Assembly (NCBI GenBank): GCA_002712945.1
Contig: PAVA01000072.1
Coordinates: 1-46,894 of the forward strand
Origin: Citromicrobium sp.
Lineage (GTDB): Bacteria; Pseudomonadota; Alphaproteobacteria; Sphingomonadales; Sphingomonadaceae
Direction of reading: 5' to 3'
Length of the DNA stretch: 46,894 nt
A program made the translations under genes and the position numbers. Under the pieces are notes generated by a model, which saw only the letters and a list, made by a program, of their open reading frames with translations, made no database searches and was not told the origin of the DNA. Numbering within the stretch: position 1 is the first letter of the stretch; the number at the start of each line of letters is the position of its first letter. Positions 650-42,047 of this stretch are shown here, piece after piece.

Positions 650-1831
650 ATGGATCATCGACCAGCTCATCTGCGCAATGCCGTTCTCGTCGGGCTCGGC
701 GCCGCCGGACTGGTGTTGTCGCCCGCCCCCGCTCTGGCGCAGGCCGAGGCGCAGGGAAGCGCGGCTGTCCAGGGCGATGCGCGCTTCGACCGCTTCGTCC
801 CTCAGGAAAGCACGAAGGCCACCCGGCTGGACTATGCGGTGTGGGACGAGGCGCTCGATTTCTTCGTGTTCTCGATGGGCATTTCCCTGCGCGAACGCGC
901 ACCGACGGTTCTGCCGTCGGTGGGCACCCGCGTGGTCTACGGCCACGATTCGCCCTATCGCCTCGAAGGCAACCGGGTCGCCTTCTCCTACCTCGAAGAC
1001 GATGTGATCGAATCGCTCACCACCTACCGGCAGGATCTCGAGAGCATGGCCGATCAGCTCGAGATCGCCAAACTGCCCCGCAACGAGCAGCTCGCCTACT
1101 GGATCAACCTGCACAACGTAGCCGTGATCGAACAGATCGCGCTGGCCTATCCGCTCAGCCGTCCCTCCAACCTCAAGATCGGCCCGGAGGAGCTTCCGCT
1201 CGACGAAGCGCCCTTCATCACCGTGAACGGCGTGGCGATGAGCCCGCGCGACATCCGCACCAAGATCGTGTTTCCCAACTGGCGCGATCCCAAGGTGATG
1301 TACGGCTTCTTCCGTGGCGATATCGGCGGCCCGTCGCTGCGCCGCAAGGCCTTTACCGGCGATAATGTCGACACGCTGCTGGACGGGGCGGCACGCGAAT
1401 TCGTCAACGCCCTGCGCGGGGTCCACAATCGCGGATCGACCCTTCAGGTCTCGCGCATTTATGCCGAGGCGCGCCCGTTCTTCTTCCCCGCCTGGCCGGA
1501 CGATCTGCGGGTCCACCTGCGCAACTATGCGAGCGAGGAAGTGCTCGAGCTTCTCGACAAGACCGACGAAGTCGACGCGGTCCTTTACGAGGAAGATATC
1601 GCGGACCTCGCGAAAGGGGAAAAGGAGCCTGTCTACACGAACGTCCAGACCACGGACGAGAATGGCAATCTCCAGCCGGTGGACACCTCGCAGATCCCGC
1701 GGAACATTCTGCGGATGGTCGCGGAACGCAACGAGAAGCTGAACAAGGCGATCCGCCGCGGCGACCGCATCGGGCGCGTCATCGTGTTGCCCGACGAGCC
1801 CGAGGAAGAGGAGGACAACGAAGTCGAATAG
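650..1831 (+). CDS. DUF547 domain secreted protein
   Basis: This is a 393-residue protein with a signal peptide (residues 1-30, ending APALA before Q31). It contains the DUF547 signature: a Trp/Tyr-rich first segment (YAVWDEALDFF) and the core 'QLAYWINLHNVAVIEQIAL' near residue 145, followed by the usual 'PRDIRTKIVFPN' region. The C-terminus ends in an acidic tail (PEEEEDNEVE). The ATG at 650 is chosen because it places the signal peptide at the N-terminus; an in-frame ATG at 575 would add 25 residues that look like noncoding sequence. DUF547 proteins are exported and of unknown function, possibly hydrolases. The gene appears monocistronic. Confidence 0.85.
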   Translation: MDHRPAHLRNAVLVGLGAAGLVLSPAPALAQAEAQGSAAVQGDARFDRFVPQESTKATRLDYAVWDEALDFFVFSMGISLRERAPTVLPSVGTRVVYGHDSPYRLEGNRVAFSYLEDDVIESLTTYRQDLESMADQLEIAKLPRNEQLAYWINLHNVAVIEQIALAYPLSRPSNLKIGPEELPLDEAPFITVNGVAMSPRDIRTKIVFPNWRDPKVMYGFFRGDIGGPSLRRKAFTGDNVDTLLDGAAREFVNALRGVHNRGSTLQVSRIYAEARPFFFPAWPDDLRVHLRNYASEEVLELLDKTDEVDAVLYEEDIADLAKGEKEPVYTNVQTTDENGNLQPVDTSQIPRNILRMVAERNEKLNKAIRRGDRIGRVIVLPDEPEEEEDNEVE

Positions 1832-1955
1832 GCTTCCGGGTCCTCGGCCGGGCGCGGTTGCTACACCATGCCCGCCCCGCCCCTGCACTTGCATTTGCCC
1901 GCCCGCTCCCGAATGAAGCGCAAAAATACCTGCGCGATCTGAGGGAGGGGGAGGC

Positions 1956-3389
1956 ATGCGGGCCAAGGCTATCGGATTGCTCGTCGGGCTCGCCGCGCTG
2001 GGCTTCGCGATCTTCGCATCGCCGCCTGCCGGGCTGAGCCGCGAGGGCTTCGTCGTCGCCGGGCTGGTCGTGCTGATGGCCGCCTGGTGGATCACCGAGG
2101 CGTTGCCGCTTACCGCGACCGCGCTGATGCCCTTTCTCGTCCTGCCCTTCGCGGGCGTGATGGACGCGAACGAGACCGCGAGCGCATATTACTCGCCGAT
2201 CCTGTTCCTGCTGCTGGGCGGGGCCTTCATCGCGCTCGCCATCGAGCGGGTCGGCCTTCATCGTCGGCTGTCGCTCGGCATCCTGAGGCTTGCCGGCGCG
2301 CATGCCGGACCCGGCCGGCTGCTGCTGGCCTTCATGATCAGCGCGGCGATCCTCTCCATGCTGATCTCCAACACCTCGACCGCGCTTATCATGATGCCGG
2401 TCGCGCTCGCGGTTCTGTCGGCGGGGCCCCAGGCCGCTCGCGAGGGCAGGGATGGCGCGGAACCCGATACGGAGGGGCTGAGCGGCGCGTTGCCGATGGG
2501 CATTGCCTTCGCGTGCAGCATCGGCGGGCTCGGCACGCTGGTCGGCTCGCCCACCAATGCCATCGCGGTCGGCCTGCTCGACCAGACCATCGGCGTGCGG
2601 ATCAGCTTTGCGGCCTGGACGATGTACGGCCTGCCGGTGGTGATCATCGGCATTCCGCTCGCGGCTGCCATCATCGCGCGAGTTCAGCGGGTGCGCGACC
2701 GGCCTTTCGATTCGGACGCCGCGCGCGAGGCGATCCCGGTGGAGCACGACTGGAGCGCGCCCGAAAAGCGCCTCGTTCCGCTGGTCGCCATCACCTTCCT
2801 GCTGTGGATGAGCCAGCCGCTGCTCGGCCCGCTGCTGCCCGAAGGATCGCTGACCGACGGCACCATCGCCATCGGCGCCAGCCTGCTCCTGTTCCTGATC
2901 CCCGACGGCACGGGCCGCACGCTGCTCAACTGGAGCGAGGCCGACCGCGCGCCATGGGGCGTCATCATGATGTTCGGCGGCGGGCTCGCGCTGGCGGCGG
3001 GCATGACCGCGAGCGGGCTGGCCACCTGGCTCGGCGATGCGCTGCTGCCGCTTTCCGCCGTGCCGCTGCTGCTGGTCGCCTTCGCGGTGGTCGCGATGGT
3101 GATCCTCATCACCGAGTTCGCTAGCAACGTCGCGACCGCATCGGCCATCGTGCCCGTCGTCGCCAGCCTGATCGTCACGCTCGGCGCGCCGCCCGAACTG
3201 CTCGCGCTGCCGGTGGCGCTGGCGGCGAGCTGGGGCTTCATGCTGCCCGCAGGGACCGGGCCCAATGCCATCGCCTGGTCGACCGGGCGGATACGGATCG
3301 GGCGGATGGTCACGGCCGGCGTGATGCTCGACCTGATCGGCGTGGTCCTGATCGTCGGCGCGGTTTGGACGGTCGCGGCGGTGGTCTGA
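1956..3389 (+). CDS. DASS family (SLC13-type) anion/dicarboxylate transporter
   Basis: This is a 477-residue inner-membrane protein with about eleven hydrophobic segments. Both halves carry the substrate- and sodium-site signatures of the divalent anion:sodium symporter family: 'LISNTSTALIMMP' near residue 135 followed by 'GSPTNAIAVGLL' near 200, then 'TEFASNVATASAIVPV' near 390 followed by 'PAGTGPNAIAWSTG' near 430. The second motif reads SNV rather than the more common SNT. The family takes up C4-dicarboxylates, citrate or sulfate by sodium coupling; the exact substrate cannot be read here. A purine-rich ribosome site (gggagggggagg) precedes the ATG. The next gene starts 165 bases downstream behind a structured leader. 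Confidence 0.88.
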   Translation: MRAKAIGLLVGLAALGFAIFASPPAGLSREGFVVAGLVVLMAAWWITEALPLTATALMPFLVLPFAGVMDANETASAYYSPILFLLLGGAFIALAIERVGLHRRLSLGILRLAGAHAGPGRLLLAFMISAAILSMLISNTSTALIMMPVALAVLSAGPQAAREGRDGAEPDTEGLSGALPMGIAFACSIGGLGTLVGSPTNAIAVGLLDQTIGVRISFAAWTMYGLPVVIIGIPLAAAIIARVQRVRDRPFDSDAAREAIPVEHDWSAPEKRLVPLVAITFLLWMSQPLLGPLLPEGSLTDGTIAIGASLLLFLIPDGTGRTLLNWSEADRAPWGVIMMFGGGLALAAGMTASGLATWLGDALLPLSAVPLLLVAFAVVAMVILITEFASNVATASAIVPVVASLIVTLGAPPELLALPVALAASWGFMLPAGTGPNAIAWSTGRIRIGRMVTAGVMLDLIGVVLIVGAVWTVAAVV

Positions 3390-19396: not shown

Positions 19397-19417
19397 GACA
19401 CCGGCCCGCCACAGGGC

Positions 19418-20449
19418 TCAGAACCAGACGCGCAGGCCGACCACGGCCTTGACGCCATCGGGGTCTTCCCCGGCAAGCCGCGCAATATCCGCCGTCTCGC
19501 CCAGCTTCGCCTCGTATTCGACGCCGACATAGGGCGCGAATTCGCGGGCGATCTCGTAGCGCAGACGCAGCCCCGGCTCGATTTTCGTGAATCCAGCGCC
19601 GATCGCGCGCTCCGGAATATCCTGCGCGGCAAGCTCTGCCTCGATACGCGGCTGGAGAATCAGCGCCTGCGTGATCTTCTGATCGTATTCGGCCTCGATC
19701 CGCGCGGTCAGGTCGCCCCGGTCGGACAGGAACAGCGCCCCGTCGACATGGAACATGTAGGGCGCGAGGCCCTGCACCCCTATCACCAGATGCGTCAGGC
19801 TGTCGGGCTCGGGATCGAAGCGGACGCCCGTTTGAAGATCGAAGAAGGGGCCGATCGCGCGGCTGTAGAGCGCCTGGATCTCGGCATCCTCCAGCGCACC
19901 GCCAATCTCGCCCTCGCCTTCGGTCTTGAGAACGAAGCGGTCGAGATCGCCGCCGTACCAGCCCTGCACATCCCACAGGTAGCCGTCTTCCCCGCCATCG
20001 GTGGCGAGGCGTGCCTCGAGCCGTTCGATCAGAATCGAGCCGGTGGTCATGCCCCCATTTCCGCGCACAAGCTCAGCGCGGGCGGGTTCCATCACATCGC
20101 TGCCCCACAGCGCATCGGCGGCATGGCGCGGCCCCTCGAAGGCGCGGGGCGGCACTGCGTCCTCGGGCGCCGCACCGGGAGCCGATTTGTCGCTCGCCGC
20201 GCCGTGGGAGCCATGATCCATGCCTTCCATCTCGCCCCCCGACATGCCCATGTCGGGCTTGCCCTTCTCCATCGGCGCTTCGGCGTCGGGGGCGTCCTTC
20301 GGCGGGCACTTCTCGGGCGGGAGATGACCCATGGCGCAATGGTCCATCGCCGGTTCGGGCTCCGACTTCGCGGGATGCGAAGCGTGGCTTTGCGCGGCGA
20401 GCGGACTGGCCAGAAACACCGCGCCAAGAAGGATTGTCGCGCGGATCAT
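19418..20449 (-). CDS. copB: Copper resistance outer-membrane protein CopB
   Basis: The 343-residue protein has a signal peptide (MIRATILLGAVFLASPLAAQ). A His/Met/Cys-rich metal-binding segment (MDHCAMGHLPPEKC, then MGMSGGEMEGMDHGSHG) covers about residues 35-95. The C-terminal beta-barrel domain starts near 'ADALWGSDVMEPARAEL' and ends 'GLRVWF'. CopB works with CopA to sequester or export copper. The ATG at 20449 overlaps the copA stop as ATGA; upstream in-frame sequence belongs to copA. The pair is divergent from a CsoR-type regulator. Confidence 0.93.
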   Translation of the reverse strand: MIRATILLGAVFLASPLAAQSHASHPAKSEPEPAMDHCAMGHLPPEKCPPKDAPDAEAPMEKGKPDMGMSGGEMEGMDHGSHGAASDKSAPGAAPEDAVPPRAFEGPRHAADALWGSDVMEPARAELVRGNGGMTTGSILIERLEARLATDGGEDGYLWDVQGWYGGDLDRFVLKTEGEGEIGGALEDAEIQALYSRAIGPFFDLQTGVRFDPEPDSLTHLVIGVQGLAPYMFHVDGALFLSDRGDLTARIEAEYDQKITQALILQPRIEAELAAQDIPERAIGAGFTKIEPGLRLRYEIAREFAPYVGVEYEAKLGETADIARLAGEDPDGVKAVVGLRVWF

Positions 20450-22137
20450 GCGCCGTCTCCTTCGGGGAACGGGCGCACGGTCACCACCTGAAACATGCCT
20501 GCGTGCATGTGGTAGAGCAGGTGGCAATGGAAGGCCCAGTCGCCCGGCTCGTTGGCGGTCAGATCGAAAGTGGCGGTGCCGCCCGGCTGCACGATAAGGG
20601 TGTGCTTCAGGGGCTGGTGCATGTGGTCCGCGCCATTGACCAGCTCGAAGAAATGGCCGTGAAGATGGATCGGGTGCGCCATCATCGTCTGGTTGACCAG
20701 CTTGACCCGCACCCGCTCGTCATAGCCGAAGCGGATCGGATCGTCGCTGACGGCGGTGAATTTCTTGCCGTCGAAGCTCCACATGTAGCGTTCCATGTTG
20801 CCGGTGAGGTGGATCTCCATCTCCCGGTCGACCTCGCGGTGCGGGTTCATCCGCTTCGCCTTCAGGTCGGTATAACGCAGCACGCGGTGCGCCACCTTGT
20901 CGAGGCCGAGGCCGGGGAAGTCCATGCGATCCATCGGCATCGGGGCAATCATGTCGACACCCGGGCCGACCTTCACGTCATCGGGCACGAGCGACTTGTC
21001 CCGCATGGAATGGTCCATGTCGCCCATGCCTTCCATGCCGCCATGATCCATCATGCCCATATCGGCCATGGTCAGTGTCACGGGTTCACGAAGCGCAGGC
21101 GGCGTAGCGATGTGGCCGGCATGGCTGGTGAGGCTGGCGATGCCCATCCCGCTGCGATCCATTGCCTCGGCAACGATGGCGTGGCTGCCATCGGGCGGAG
21201 TCACGATCACGTCGTAGGTCTCGGCCACGCCGATCTGGAACTCGTCCACCTCGACCGGCGCGACATCCTGCCCGTCGGCCGCGATCACCGTCATCGGCAC
21301 GCCGGGAATGCGCAGATTGAAGAAGGTCATCGCCGAGCCGTTGATGATCCGCAGGCGCACCTGTTCGCCCGCACGGAATGCGAACTGGAGGTCGTCCTGC
21401 GGACCATGGCCGTTGACGAGGAAGGTGTAGGTGCTGCCCGTCACGTCCGAGATGTCGCGCGGGTTCATCCGCATCCGGCCCCACATGCGCCGCATCGCAC
21501 CCGGCATGTCGCCCTCGGTCGCGGTCTGCATCTGGCGGTTGAAATAGTGCTCGCCGACCTTGAGCTTGCGAATGATCTCGTGCGGATGCATCGGCGTGAA
21601 CTCGCTCAGCAGCACGACGTAATCGCGGTCGTAGCGCGGATCGGGATCGGCGCTTTCGACCACGATCGGGCCGTAGTGCCCCGCCTGCTCCTGCAGGCCC
21701 GAATGCGAGTGCCACCAGTAGGTGCCGCTCTGGCGGATCGGGAATTCGTAGGTGAAACGCTCGCCCGGACGGATGCCGGGGAAGCTGACGCCGGGCACGC
21801 CATCGAATTGGAAAGGCACCAGCAGCCCGTGCCAGTGGATCGAGCTGTCTTCGTCGAGGCCATTGGCAACATTGAAGCGGACGGTCTGCCCTTCGCGCAG
21901 GCGGATCAGCGGACCCGGCACCGTGCCGTTCACCGCGACCGCGTGGCCCGACCGGCCGCCAGTGGCGAAATGATGCCTGCCGATGGCAAGGTCGATTGTC
22001 TCGCCCGAAAGCTCGCCAAAACCCTTCTTCGCATGGGTCAGCGACGCGCCCTTCGCCCAGGCGGGCATGGGCAGGGCACTGGCGGCAGCGAGCGCGGCGG
22101 TGCTCTTGATGAGGCGGCGACGGGAAAGAGGGGGCAT
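20446..22137 (-). CDS. copA: Multicopper oxidase CopA (copper resistance)
   Basis: The 563-residue protein starts with a Tat-type signal (SRRRLIKSTAALAAASALP), as expected for a folded, copper-loaded periplasmic oxidase. The four copper-ligand motifs are present: 'SIHWHGLLVP', 'YWWHSHSGLQEQAG', 'HPIHLHGHFFELV' and 'WAFHCHLLYHMHAGMF'. A Met/His-rich insert (MGMMDHGGMEGMGDMDHSM) near residue 360 is typical of CopA/PcoA and binds Cu(I). It oxidises Cu(I) to the less toxic Cu(II). The ATG at 22137 places the twin-arginine motif at the N-terminus. Confidence 0.95.
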   Translation of the reverse strand: MPPLSRRRLIKSTAALAAASALPMPAWAKGASLTHAKKGFGELSGETIDLAIGRHHFATGGRSGHAVAVNGTVPGPLIRLREGQTVRFNVANGLDEDSSIHWHGLLVPFQFDGVPGVSFPGIRPGERFTYEFPIRQSGTYWWHSHSGLQEQAGHYGPIVVESADPDPRYDRDYVVLLSEFTPMHPHEIIRKLKVGEHYFNRQMQTATEGDMPGAMRRMWGRMRMNPRDISDVTGSTYTFLVNGHGPQDDLQFAFRAGEQVRLRIINGSAMTFFNLRIPGVPMTVIAADGQDVAPVEVDEFQIGVAETYDVIVTPPDGSHAIVAEAMDRSGMGIASLTSHAGHIATPPALREPVTLTMADMGMMDHGGMEGMGDMDHSMRDKSLVPDDVKVGPGVDMIAPMPMDRMDFPGLGLDKVAHRVLRYTDLKAKRMNPHREVDREMEIHLTGNMERYMWSFDGKKFTAVSDDPIRFGYDERVRVKLVNQTMMAHPIHLHGHFFELVNGADHMHQPLKHTLIVQPGGTATFDLTANEPGDWAFHCHLLYHMHAGMFQVVTVRPFPEGDGA

Positions 22138-22177
22138 GGGGGCCTGCGAGTGATTGATCCTGCGGGCGCGCCTATAT

Positions 22178-22194
22178 ATACCCCCATGGGGTAT
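22178..22194. promoter_or_regulatory. CsoR-type operator between copA and the regulator gene
   Basis: The sequence ATACCCCCATGGGGTAT is an imperfect inverted repeat with a C/G-run core (CCCCATGGGG) flanked by ATA/TAT. This is the pattern of CsoR/RcnR-class operators. It sits 20 bases upstream of the regulator ATG and 41 bases upstream of copA, so one site could control both genes. Confidence 0.7.
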
Positions 22195-22213
22195 TACAAT
22201 CGGACTTTGGACC

Positions 22214-22483
22214 ATGGCTGATACAAAGAGCGCCAAAATCAATCGGCTGAACCGGATCGCAGGCCAGGTGCGCGGCCTCGCGCAGATGATCGAGGATGAT
22301 CGCTACTGCATGGACATCCTGCACCAGCTGCAGGCGGTCAAATCCGCGCTCGCCAAGGTCGAGACGCAGGTCCTGAAGGACCACGCGGCGTGTTGCGTCG
22401 CCGAAGCCATCGCCAGCGGAGACGAAGCCGACCAGCGCGAAAAGTTCGAGGAACTGGTGGAGCTGTTCGCCAAGCGCCGCTGA
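22214..22483 (+). CDS. csoR: CsoR-type metal-sensing transcriptional repressor
   Basis: The 89-residue all-helical protein belongs to the CsoR/RcnR family: 'INRLNRIAGQVRGLAQMIED', then 'YCMDILHQLQAVKSAL' and 'VLKDHAACCVAEAI'. The Cys in YCMD with His and Cys in DHAACC matches the Cys-His-Cys copper site of CsoR rather than the Ni/Co or formaldehyde-type sites. It would repress copAB and itself until Cu(I) binds. The ATG at 22214 is chosen because the family begins close to this point. A G/C-run operator lies directly upstream. Confidence 0.88.
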   Translation: MADTKSAKINRLNRIAGQVRGLAQMIEDDRYCMDILHQLQAVKSALAKVETQVLKDHAACCVAEAIASGDEADQREKFEELVELFAKRR

Positions 22484-32465: not shown

Positions 32466-32490
32466 GGAACCGCGTTGCAGACAGGCCGTT
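32466..32490 (+). promoter_or_regulatory. EcfG (general stress) sigma promoter of the three-gene stress unit
   Basis: GGAAC at 32466-32470 and CGTT at 32487-32490 are separated by exactly 16 bases. This matches the consensus GGAAC-N16/17-CGTT of the alphaproteobacterial PhyR-NepR-EcfG regulon. It lies 32 bases upstream of the ATG at 32523. Confidence 0.75.
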
Positions 32491-37706: not shown

Positions 37707-38093
37707 CTAGTTAGGCCGGGCCGCTGCATCCGGCGTCCGGGCCAGCGCCAGCGCGGTTTCGACCACCCGGCGCGAACACGCGGGCTTGGCGATCAATTCG
37801 GCATCGAGCGCCGCGAGCGTCCCTTCCTGCCGGTTGAGATCGCCCGAATGGAGAAGGTAGGGAATCGAGCGCCGCTCCAGCTCGCGCGCGACCGGGATGC
37901 AGGTCTCGCCATCGCGCAGCGTCACGTCGAGCACGGCGCAGGATACGCCGCCCTGGGCTTCGATGTGCTCCATTGCTTCGCGCACATTGGTCGCCGTCAG
38001 CGGCAGGCAATCCTTGTCTTCGGCCGCAAACTCGAGGTCCATGAGGATCAGGGGCTCGTCGTCCAGCAGAAGGATCCGGCAATCTGCGTTCAT
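37707..38093 (-). CDS. Single-domain response regulator (LovR-like)
   Basis: The 128-residue receiver domain has the acidic pair D11-D12 ('RILLLDDEPLILMDLEF'), the phosphoacceptor D56 in 'CAVLDVTLRDG', and the lysine in 'ELIAKPACSRRVV'. There is no output domain. Its start overlaps the stop of the LOV histidine kinase region (ATGA at 38090-38093), so they form an operon. In Erythrobacter litoralis and Caulobacter, LovR-type regulators pair with LOV kinases to tune the general stress response. This is probably the partner, although the kinase gene is frameshifted here. Confidence 0.85.
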   Translation of the reverse strand: MNADCRILLLDDEPLILMDLEFAAEDKDCLPLTATNVREAMEHIEAQGGVSCAVLDVTLRDGETCIPVARELERRSIPYLLHSGDLNRQEGTLAALDAELIAKPACSRRVVETALALARTPDAAARPN

Positions 38094-39165
38094 GCCCCGC
38101 CTCCCTCGATCGGCACGGTGAGGACGGCATGCAGGCCTTCGGGCTTCCAGTCCCTTTCGATCGTGCCGCGCGCGGCCGCGACCATACGGTCCATGATAAC
38201 CGCGCCCGGCCCGGTGTCCTCCGGCGGACCATCCACCCGGGGGCCGCCTGTTTCGATCCAGGTCAGCACCACGTTGCCCCCATCACGCTGCCAGTCCAGC
38301 CTCACCTGTCCTTTGCCCTCCCCTGCCCAAGCGCCGAAGCGGGTGGCATTGCCCGCCAGTTCGTGCAGCACAAGCCCGATGAGAGACATGGCCGAAAACG
38401 GCACTTGTACGCCATTACCGAGAAATTTCAGCTGTTCACCCTCCGCATAGGGCTGGAGGATCGCTTTCACCGCGGGCCCCAGGTCGATCACGCCGACAGA
38501 CGCTTCGTCCAGCGTCGTCTCGTACGCCCGCCCAGCGCCTGGATACGGCTGTTGATCTCGCCCGTCGCGTCCTCGATCCCGCGCACCCGGCCCATCACGT
38601 TGACGATGCCGGAAATGACCGAGAACATATTCTTCATCCGATGCGACAGCTCGCGCGCCATCTCGCGTGCGTGACGTTCTTCGGCCCGCGCGGCGCGGAC
38701 ATCGGACACATCCCACTGGCTGCCGAAGAAATAGATCAGCTTGCCTTGCGAATCGTAGATCGGGCCGAGGTGCAGGGCGTTCCAGAAAGGCGTGCCGTCC
38801 TTGCGGTAATTGAGCAGCTCGATCACCAGGACGTCTTCGTTCTCAATCGCCTCGCGCACGCGCGCAACCGCTTCGCGATCGGTCTTGGGGCCTTGCAGAA
38901 AGCGGCAATTGCGGCCGAGGACTTCGTCTTCCTCGTAGCCGGTCAGCCGGCGGAAGGCGCGATTGGCGAAGACGATCGGCAGGTCGGGCTGGGTAGGATC
39001 GCTCAGGCACACCGCCATGCGGGTTTGCGCCATCGCCTGCTCGAACAACACGCCGGACGTGTCGGAGAAACGATCCTCCTGCTCCACGTCCTTCATGTCG
39101 CGGCGCGGGCGCGCCTGCGGATCGCTCGTGCCAGCCTGGTTATGTACCTCAGGACGGTCGGCCAT
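38090..39165 (-). pseudogene. LOV-domain HWE histidine kinase interrupted by a one-base frameshift
   Basis: The first frame (39165-38488, 225 residues) carries a LOV domain with flavin-adduct Cys87 in 'GRNCRFLQGPKTD', then 'YRKDGTPFWNALHLGPIYDS' and 'FFGSQWDVSDVRAARAEERH'. The phosphoacceptor His175 follows in 'ELSHRMKNMFSVISGIV'. After 'SRIQALG' the frame changes and soon ends. The +1-shifted frame continues as 'GRAYETTLDEASVGVIDLGP' with 'LVLHELAGNATRFGAWAG' (N box) and 'VVLTWIETGGPRVDGPPEDT' (HWE-type WxE). Total length is 1076 bases, one short of 359 codons. A missing C in GGC(C)GGGCG near 38525-38530 would explain it. It could be a real loss or an assembly error. Confidence 0.85.
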
Positions 39166-39219
39166 GGAAATCCAGTTGAATCAGCCGTATCATGGCTGGG
39201 AGTTAACGTTGACTGGCTG

Positions 39220-39244
39220 AACGGCCATGATCGCGACCTGTTCC
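39220..39244 (-). promoter_or_regulatory. EcfG (general stress) sigma promoter of the LOV kinase operon
   Basis: On the minus strand GGAAC (39244-39240) and CGTT (39223-39220) are separated by exactly 16 bases, matching the EcfG consensus. It lies 54 bases upstream of the kinase ATG at 39165. Confidence 0.7.
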
Positions 39245-42021: not shown

Positions 42022-42047
42022 AACGGCCCGAAACCCGCGGCCGTTCC
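42022..42047 (-). promoter_or_regulatory. EcfG (general stress) sigma promoter of the DUF6491 gene
   Basis: On the minus strand GGAAC (42047-42043) and CGTT (42025-42022) are separated by 17 bases, within the accepted spacing of the EcfG consensus. It lies 48 bases upstream of the ATG at 41973. Confidence 0.6.

What the first reader, a model, noticed from the sequence alone, without database searches (positions are those of the whole stretch)
38090..39244. Light-sensing LOV-HWE kinase split by a single missing base, with its LovR-like partner and EcfG promoter intact
The N-terminal frame holds an intact LOV photocycle cysteine and phosphoacceptor His. The continuation (N box, HWE-type WxE) is intact but in the next frame, and the total length is one base short of a whole number of codons. 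The rest is well preserved, so any damage is recent, or it is an assembly error, or it is a programmed or phase-variable switch. A truncated sensor that keeps LOV and the His phosphoacceptor but lacks the ATPase domain could act as a light-dependent scavenger. Erythrobacter LOV kinases feed the PhyR stress pathway, and this one also appears to be a target of that pathway.
Basis: partly seen in the sequence, partly recalled or inferred. Interest (0 to 1): 0.75.

Follow-up and report, generated by a model that had tools for sequence, protein, structure and literature searches.

The report
Blue-light sensor kinase cut in two
In an unnamed marine Citromicrobium-like bacterium the gene for a blue-light-sensing stress kinase has lost one DNA letter, which separates its light sensor from its ATP-binding half; this is most likely a recently disabled light switch whose promoter and partner protein are still in place.

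Summary
On the minus strand, ORF 38488-39165 holds an intact LOV domain (Cys87) and HWE phosphoacceptor helix (His175). At 38530/38529 the frame slips by one base, and the ATP-binding (CA) half continues intact in the next frame to 38090. A LovR/SdrG-like receiver gene (37707-38093) and an EcfG-type promoter (39220-39244) are intact. Orthologues in 9 of 10 genomes of the nearest held genus are unbroken; the tenth lacks kinase and receiver. A lone sequencing slip is unlikely: the protein database lists the CA half as its own 133-aa protein in 21 contigs and the receiver in 19, and its search listed no intact copy closer than 95% (N-half). The CA half's GTG start overlaps the TGA of the first half (GTGA). 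Selection on the CA half shows no relaxation, so the break is young. No slippery heptamer or repeat tract was seen. Erythrobacter sp. JK5 carries an independent one-base break at the DHp/CA junction, also with CA frame and receiver preserved. Best explanation: a recent loss-of-function allele of a kind seen once more in this family. A split kinase working in trans by termination-reinitiation is not excluded but improbable.

The parts
39220..39244 (-). EcfG-type promoter, GGAAC-N16-CGTT, 54 nt upstream of the kinase ATG
   Evidence: GGAAC and GTT invariant in window + 9 congeners, 8 of the 15 invariant columns of that upstream alignment
38488..39165 (-). N-half ORF, 225 aa: LOV domain (Cys87), linker helix, HWE H-box helix (His175), start of second DHp helix (genuine to residue 212, base 38530), out-of-frame tail 213-225
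38529..38530 (-). junction at which the reading frame slips by one base relative to intact relatives
38488..38491 (-). GTGA: stop TGA (38490-38488) of the N-half overlapping a possible GTG start (38491-38489) of the C-half; no clear Shine-Dalgarno
38090..38491 (-). C-half ORF, 133 aa: HWE catalytic and ATP-binding (CA) domain, N box and WxE intact; listed as its own database protein (P0123) in 21 contigs
37707..38093 (-). single-domain receiver (LovR/SdrG-like), 128 aa; ATG overlaps the kinase stop (ATGA)
38100..38104 (-). Shine-Dalgarno GGAGG of the receiver gene, 6 nt before its ATG
   Evidence: -11.4 kcal/mol, best 1% of positions in the operon

Best explanation
This is a real, recent loss-of-function allele of a LOV-HWE blue-light histidine kinase in a natural population of a Citromicrobium/Alteriqipengyuania-like species. 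Shown: one base is missing inside the second DHp helix; the sensor and phosphoacceptor half ends 13 codons later; the CA half stays intact in the next frame. Shown: the EcfG-type promoter and the downstream receiver gene are intact, and the receiver has its own strong ribosome-binding site. Inferred: the operon is still transcribed under general stress and the receiver still made; the LOV protein still sees light but cannot phosphorylate itself in cis, so light no longer drives phosphate through this receiver toward the PhyR-NepR-EcfG pathway. Inferred: the loss is tolerated, as in the congener that lacks kinase and receiver and in Erythrobacter sp. JK5, whose kinase has an independent one-base break about 40 codons further on.
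For: Break. Not a lone slip: CA half as a separate 133-aa protein, 21 contigs, longest 56,388 nt; receiver in 19 contigs, longest also 56,388; nearest intact protein 95% identical in the N-half and 89% in the C-half, its cluster holding one member. Of 77 genes of two relatives that match the window at 55% identity or more (36,090 of 46,894 bases), only this kinase continues in a second frame in a way that I cannot put down to shadow frames or stretches before a start codon. Young: dN/dS after the break is 0.112-0.155 against nine relatives, and 0.037-0.186 in nine relative-to-relative pairs; window-derived changes in the C-half are 9 synonymous, 3 nonsynonymous; the 12 codons between break and GTG keep their peptide while differing at three synonymous sites from JLT1363 (read). 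Structure: the N-half model ends its second DHp helix at residue 211, tail below pLDDT 50. Recurrence and dispensability: JK5 break with CA frame and receiver kept; congener G010 has the two flanking genes adjacent, without kinase or receiver.
Against: The contigs behind P0123 and P0212 cannot be inspected, so their independence is unknown, and what the contig column counts is my inference. The N-half product was not listed as its own entry among the 120 shown of 2903 hits; it may sit in a cluster with a longer representative. No reads, no genome of this species, no expression data. The CA half models well as a unit and has a possible start at the domain border. The kinase's own ATG scores as weak a Shine-Dalgarno (-3.1) as the GTG (-3.0), so a weak score does not prove that the GTG is silent.
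Confidence: 0.68

Rival explanations
1. Sequencing or assembly error: the gene is whole in the organism, and the missing base is an artefact repeated because the 21 contigs are re-assemblies of the same reads.
For: No relaxation of selection; the site lies in a G/C-rich stretch; independence of the contigs unknown.
Against: No homopolymer longer than three at the site (sequence); no other clear frame break in the 36,090 bases compared with relatives' genes, so the assembly does not look error-rich; no intact near-identical copy in the listings from a 5.8-billion-protein set.
Confidence: 0.15
2. Functional split kinase: the LOV-DHp half and the CA half are made as two proteins, coupled by termination-reinitiation at GTGA, and the CA half phosphorylates His175 in trans.
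For: GTGA overlap at the first codon of a self-contained CA domain (AlphaFold mean pLDDT 91.2; the ten best PDB matches are chains of LOV-HWE kinases); both halves still look constrained; bipartite kinases exist, e.g. CheA3/CheA4 (passages of PMC3591291); overlapping gene pairs can be coupled and the need for an SD varies by pair (passages of PMC6728339); the kinase's own start has no better SD than the GTG.
Against: No clear Shine-Dalgarno before the GTG (-3.0 kcal/mol, about the median of the operon); the conserved segment AYETTLDEASVG is in neither product; the GTGA is a by-product of an in-frame GTG-ATC pair also seen in 4 of 5 relatives; constraint is equally explained by recency.
Confidence: 0.08
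3. The LOV-DHp half alone is retained as a light-controlled phosphatase, sink or decoy for the receiver.
For: LOV Cys, His175 and promoter are intact; a second break in JK5 also leaves LOV and DHp; LOV-HKs without the phosphoacceptor His are reported (passage of PMC10359499).
Against: The second DHp helix is truncated; no sign that the N-half is kept and the C-half let go; only two cases.
Confidence: 0.07
4. Programmed frameshifting or phase variation makes full-length kinase from this allele.
For: Only that one frame is open up to the junction and the next from it.
Against: No slippery heptamer or repeat tract seen at the junction (sequence); intact frame in 9 of 9 congeners that carry the gene.
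Confidence: 0.02

Closest known systems
LOV-HWE kinases of Erythrobacter litoralis (EL346, EL362, EL368; named in PMC10359499, passages read) and NCBIfam NF010077 (PRK13559)
   Same: LOV sensor, HWE H-box, N box and WxE in the same order; the intact relative P0003 aligns to EL346 (4r3a) over residues 44-331 and scores 450.5 bits against the NF010077 cut-off of 361
   Different: here divided between two frames; neither half passes the NF010077 cut-off (315.9 and 121.3 bits)
LovK-LovR of Caulobacter (names recalled, and seen in search listings and a reference list)
   Same: LOV-HWE kinase beside a single-domain receiver, linked to the general stress response
   Different: no sequence comparison with Caulobacter LovK or LovR was made; the kinase here is broken
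Single-domain receivers 2msw (identity as EL_LovR recalled) and SdrG (5ieb)
   Same: 76.1 and 50.8 bits over most of the receiver
   Different: Pfam Response_reg reaches 21.3 bits, below its cut-off of 30.2
Bipartite kinase CheA3/CheA4 of Rhodobacter sphaeroides (PMC3591291, passages read)
   Same: phosphoacceptor and ATP-binding parts on separate polypeptides
   Different: there both proteins keep docking domains and reaction in trans was shown; here a DHp helix is cut and nothing was shown
LOV-HWE kinase of Erythrobacter sp. JK5 (L170)
   Same: one-base frame break at the DHp/CA junction with LOV, CA frame and receiver kept
   Different: independent event about 40 codons downstream, in a 3,340,457-base contig

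Membership tests
LOV-HWE histidine kinase | LOV domain with photocycle cysteine (NCRFLQ) | tested here: met
   Cys87 in GRNCRFLQ, invariant in 36 aligned proteins
LOV-HWE histidine kinase | HWE H-box with phosphoacceptor His | tested here: met
   HWE_HK 26.6 bits against cut-off 22.8, residues 172-212; His175 invariant
LOV-HWE histidine kinase | N box and WxE of the CA domain | tested here: met
   HELAGNATRFG and TWIE in the C-half; CA fold
LOV-HWE histidine kinase | sensor, DHp and CA in one polypeptide | tested here: not met
   frame slips at 38530/38529
LOV-HWE histidine kinase | light-dependent autophosphorylation | not testable with these tools
   biochemistry needed
LovR/SdrG-like single-domain receiver | receiver only, beside a HWE kinase | tested here: met
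   128 aa, ATGA overlap with the kinase stop; 2msw 76.1 bits, 5ieb 50.8 bits
LovR/SdrG-like single-domain receiver | passes Pfam Response_reg cut-off | tested here: not met
   21.3 of 30.2 bits
EcfG-dependent promoter | GGAAC-N17-20-GTT within 100 nt of the start (form given in PMC6599016, passages read) | tested here: met
   N17 to GTT, 54 nt before the ATG, present in 10 of 10
EcfG-dependent promoter | EcfG-dependent transcription | not testable with these tools
   no expression data
Split histidine kinase | both parts made as separate proteins and reacting in trans | not testable with these tools
   the CA half is a predicted database protein only
Phase-variable gene | simple repeat tract at the frame slip | tested here: not met
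   no run longer than three at the junction, read from the sequence

The most novel reading that the evidence does not exclude
A blue-light HWE kinase has become a two-protein kinase in nature: a LOV-DHp subunit and a free CA subunit made from overlapping ORFs joined by GTGA, under an EcfG stress promoter. Loss of one base at the DHp/CA border would be a recurring route (here and in Erythrobacter sp. JK5) by which marine Erythrobacteraceae uncouple light sensing from phosphorylation.
Probability: 0.07. Interest if true: 0.7.

Novelty: new member of a known kind. Interest (0 to 1): 0.35.

Why it matters
If real, it is a natural loss of blue-light input to the general stress response in a marine lineage, with promoter and receiver still standing. 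It gives a testable case of what a LovR-like receiver does without its kinase. Two independent breaks near the same domain border make it worth asking whether LOV-DHp proteins without a CA domain are selected or only decaying. As sequence alone it is close to ordinary: this gene was found at E <= 1e-60 in only 64 of 397 family genomes searched, so it is gained and lost.

Tried and rejected
Programmed frameshifting and phase variation: rejected, no slippery heptamer or repeat seen by eye in the sequence. Old pseudogene: rejected by dN/dS and lineage counts. Error-rich assembly: rejected by comparing the window with relatives' genes. The first passes were poor, because long shadow frames outranked real genes and the output was cut; I repeated the survey with 109 coding-like reference ORFs of two relatives, 77 of which match. 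Fifteen of the 77 were flagged for a stop or a second frame: two are this kinase; I put the other 13 down to antisense or shadow frames or stretches ahead of a start, by position and not by further tests. 10,804 bases were not covered. Phage or viral copies: an exact 26-mer across the junction gave 0 matches in viral contigs. tRNA and Rfam (gathering) scans of the window were empty. The CA half alone found no solved relative by sequence and no Pfam family reported, though its model matches LOV-HWE CA domains by fold. Literature: searches for LOV/HWE/Erythrobacter, split histidine kinase, LovR/LovK, EcfG/Erythrobacter, Citromicrobium/blue light, termination-reinitiation, EnvZ domain reconstitution and LOV pseudogene/frameshift; no title or abstract start listed there describes this broken gene, but I read passages of only five papers (PMC12148442, PMC10359499, PMC3591291, PMC6599016, PMC6728339). 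Fiebig 2019 (PMC6703928) and Ocasio 2015 (PMC4423417) were not held and were not read.

Full report
Observation. The minus strand at 38090-39165 encodes a LOV-HWE histidine kinase in two frames. The first ORF (38488-39165) gives 225 aa, of which 212 are genuine and 13 are an out-of-frame tail. The second frame is open from before the junction to the stop at 38090. The two halves meet at position 216 of the 364-position NCBIfam profile NF010077. In a DNA alignment with five relatives the window's only one-base gap inside the kinase is at 38530/38529; the other indels are a 15-base insertion of one relative near the N-terminus and one at another relative's 3' end. The photocycle cysteine (Cys87), the phosphoacceptor (His175), the N box and the WxE are all kept.

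Where it comes from. No genome is held for the window. The nearest named relative is Citromicrobium sp. JLT1363, 92% identical over residues 1-212 and largely syntenic; DNA identity over the kinase-receiver stretch is 83%. The nearest database protein is P0003, 358 aa, 95% identical in the N-half and 89% in the C-half. None of the 10 held genomes of that genus is closer than 83% over this stretch, so I could reach no genome of the species.

Relatives. Of those 10 genomes, 9 carry the kinase unbroken (open frames 361-376 aa). The tenth, G010, has the Mpo1-like and S41 peptidase genes side by side with neither kinase nor receiver between them. Of 397 genomes drawn from the family, 64 have a homologue at E <= 1e-60. 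Their open frames are 349 aa or more, with one exception: G329, 248 aa, a kinase without LOV beside a receiver, whose ORF list shows no LOV frame upstream. Four of those matches carry a '1 TGA' flag; in three of them the frame runs to the normal C-terminus (355, 376 and 364 aa), and the fourth (G045, open frame 393 aa) was fetched but not seen by my filter. Of the 80 loci, 75 have at least 272 open codons from the LOV motif onward; of the other five, four gave a whole ORF in a second scan and L016 in a third. So none of the 80 shows this break.

A second case. P0108 of Erythrobacter sp. JK5 is 267 aa. It follows its relatives to about residue 251 and then runs out of frame. The genome matching it at 100% (G455, contig of the same 3,340,457-base length) has the CA half in the next frame, complete, followed by an intact receiver gene. 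It is the only one of 30 genomes with the gene in that genus (114 searched) whose open frame is short: 278 aa against 352 or more. Its site is a run of four G, so an error there is not excluded.

Is the break real? The database search with the C-half returned P0123, 133 aa, the same as the window from GTG 38491 onward with GTG read as Met, listed as 2 member sequences and 21 contigs, the longest 56,388 nt. The receiver gives P0212, identical, 10 members and 19 contigs, the longest also 56,388 nt. Sources are blank, which the tool uses for proteins that the window itself encodes. I read the contig column as contigs carrying that very sequence, since P0004 has 21 members but 1 contig; this is my inference. 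A gene caller would hardly report a 133-aa protein from GTG if the frame upstream were whole (inference). P0003's cluster has a single member, so it hides no intact copy; P0004 (about 89% overall by my weighting) is below the 90% clustering threshold. Against this, the 225-aa N-half is not listed as its own entry, and the contigs may share reads. The window is not generally broken: of 77 relatives' genes that match it, only the kinase is divided between frames in a way that shadow frames or pre-start stretches do not explain.

How old? Pairwise dN/dS after the break is 0.112-0.155 between the window and nine relatives, and 0.037-0.186 in nine of the 36 possible relative-to-relative pairs; before the break it is 0.058-0.110 and 0.008-0.108 (the junction codon was left out). 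Changes unique to the window are 9 synonymous and 4 nonsynonymous in the N-half, and 9 and 3 in the C-half; for the JLT1363/G008 pair 17/4 and 8/8 (Fisher p 0.25 for the C-half comparison, so this shows only absence of relaxation, with small numbers). The 12 codons between the break and the GTG keep their peptide although they differ from JLT1363 at three synonymous sites (read), which a long-standing split would not require. The break is therefore young on the scale of divergence from known congeners, or absent in the living cell.

What would be made. The best N-half model (mean pLDDT 74.5; the other four 47-64) has a well-folded LOV domain, a long helix 154-195 bearing His175 and a second helix ending at 211; the tail is below pLDDT 50. 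The C-half model is confident (mean pLDDT 91.2) and its ten best PDB matches are chains of LOV-HWE kinases. The TGA of the N-half overlaps the GTG of the C-half (GTGA), but there is no clear Shine-Dalgarno (-3.0 kcal/mol, near the median of operon positions), whereas the receiver has a strong one (-11.4, best 1%). The kinase's own ATG scores only -3.1, so this score does not by itself silence the GTG. The conserved segment between junction and GTG is in neither product. My reading is that the receiver is still made, the CA half is made poorly or not at all, and the kinase is inactive in cis.

Promoter and pathway. GGAAC-N16-CGTT lies 54 nt before the kinase ATG. GGAAC and GTT are invariant across window and nine relatives (several of them close kin) and make up 8 of the 15 invariant columns in that upstream alignment. 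It fits the GGAAC-N17-20-GTT motif within 100 nt of the start described for Sphingomonas melonis Fr1 (PMC6599016, passages). In the wider set, an EcfG-like site near the kinase ORF was seen in 18 of 61 scored loci in strict form and 27 in strict or loose form; no shuffled control was run there. NepR is present in 10 of 10 genomes of the genus. Control of this operon by EcfG is inferred.

Conclusion. The most economical account is a recent null allele of a known kind of sensor, with promoter and partner still in place, in a family where a like break is seen once more. A split kinase acting in trans is not excluded, and the deciding experiment is simple.

Noticed in passing
L170 (G455, Erythrobacter sp. 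JK5), 821-1935 (+): Independent one-base frame break in the homologous LOV-HWE kinase at the DHp/CA junction; CA frame and receiver intact.
   Followed up: yes
L165 (G329), 1502-2592 (-): HWE kinase of the same family without its LOV domain, still followed by a LovR-like receiver with an ATGA overlap.
   Followed up: partly
L166 (G010), 1080-2957: In one congener the genes that flank the window's kinase and receiver are adjacent; the kinase-receiver pair is missing cleanly.
   Followed up: partly
window 32466-32490 (+) and 42022-42047 (-): Two more EcfG-type sites (GGAAC-N16/17-CGTT), each a short way upstream of an ATG; possible further stress-regulated genes.
   Followed up: no
P0125, 135 aa: A second CA-only ORF of the same kinase group (70% identical), from contigs of at most 1105 nt; could be another break or a contig-edge effect.
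   Followed up: no
P0003 versus P0004: P0003 is closest to the window over most of its length, but its last 25 residues equal those of P0004: recombination or a chimeric contig.
   Followed up: no
window about 19400-22480: This stretch matches a different part of the JLT1363 contig (about 366-369 kb) than its neighbours (about 400-449 kb): a rearrangement between the two species.
   Followed up: no
window 38090-38093: The receiver start is ATG here and apparently in G007, but GTG in the other eight relatives examined, overlapping or abutting the kinase stop.
   Followed up: no
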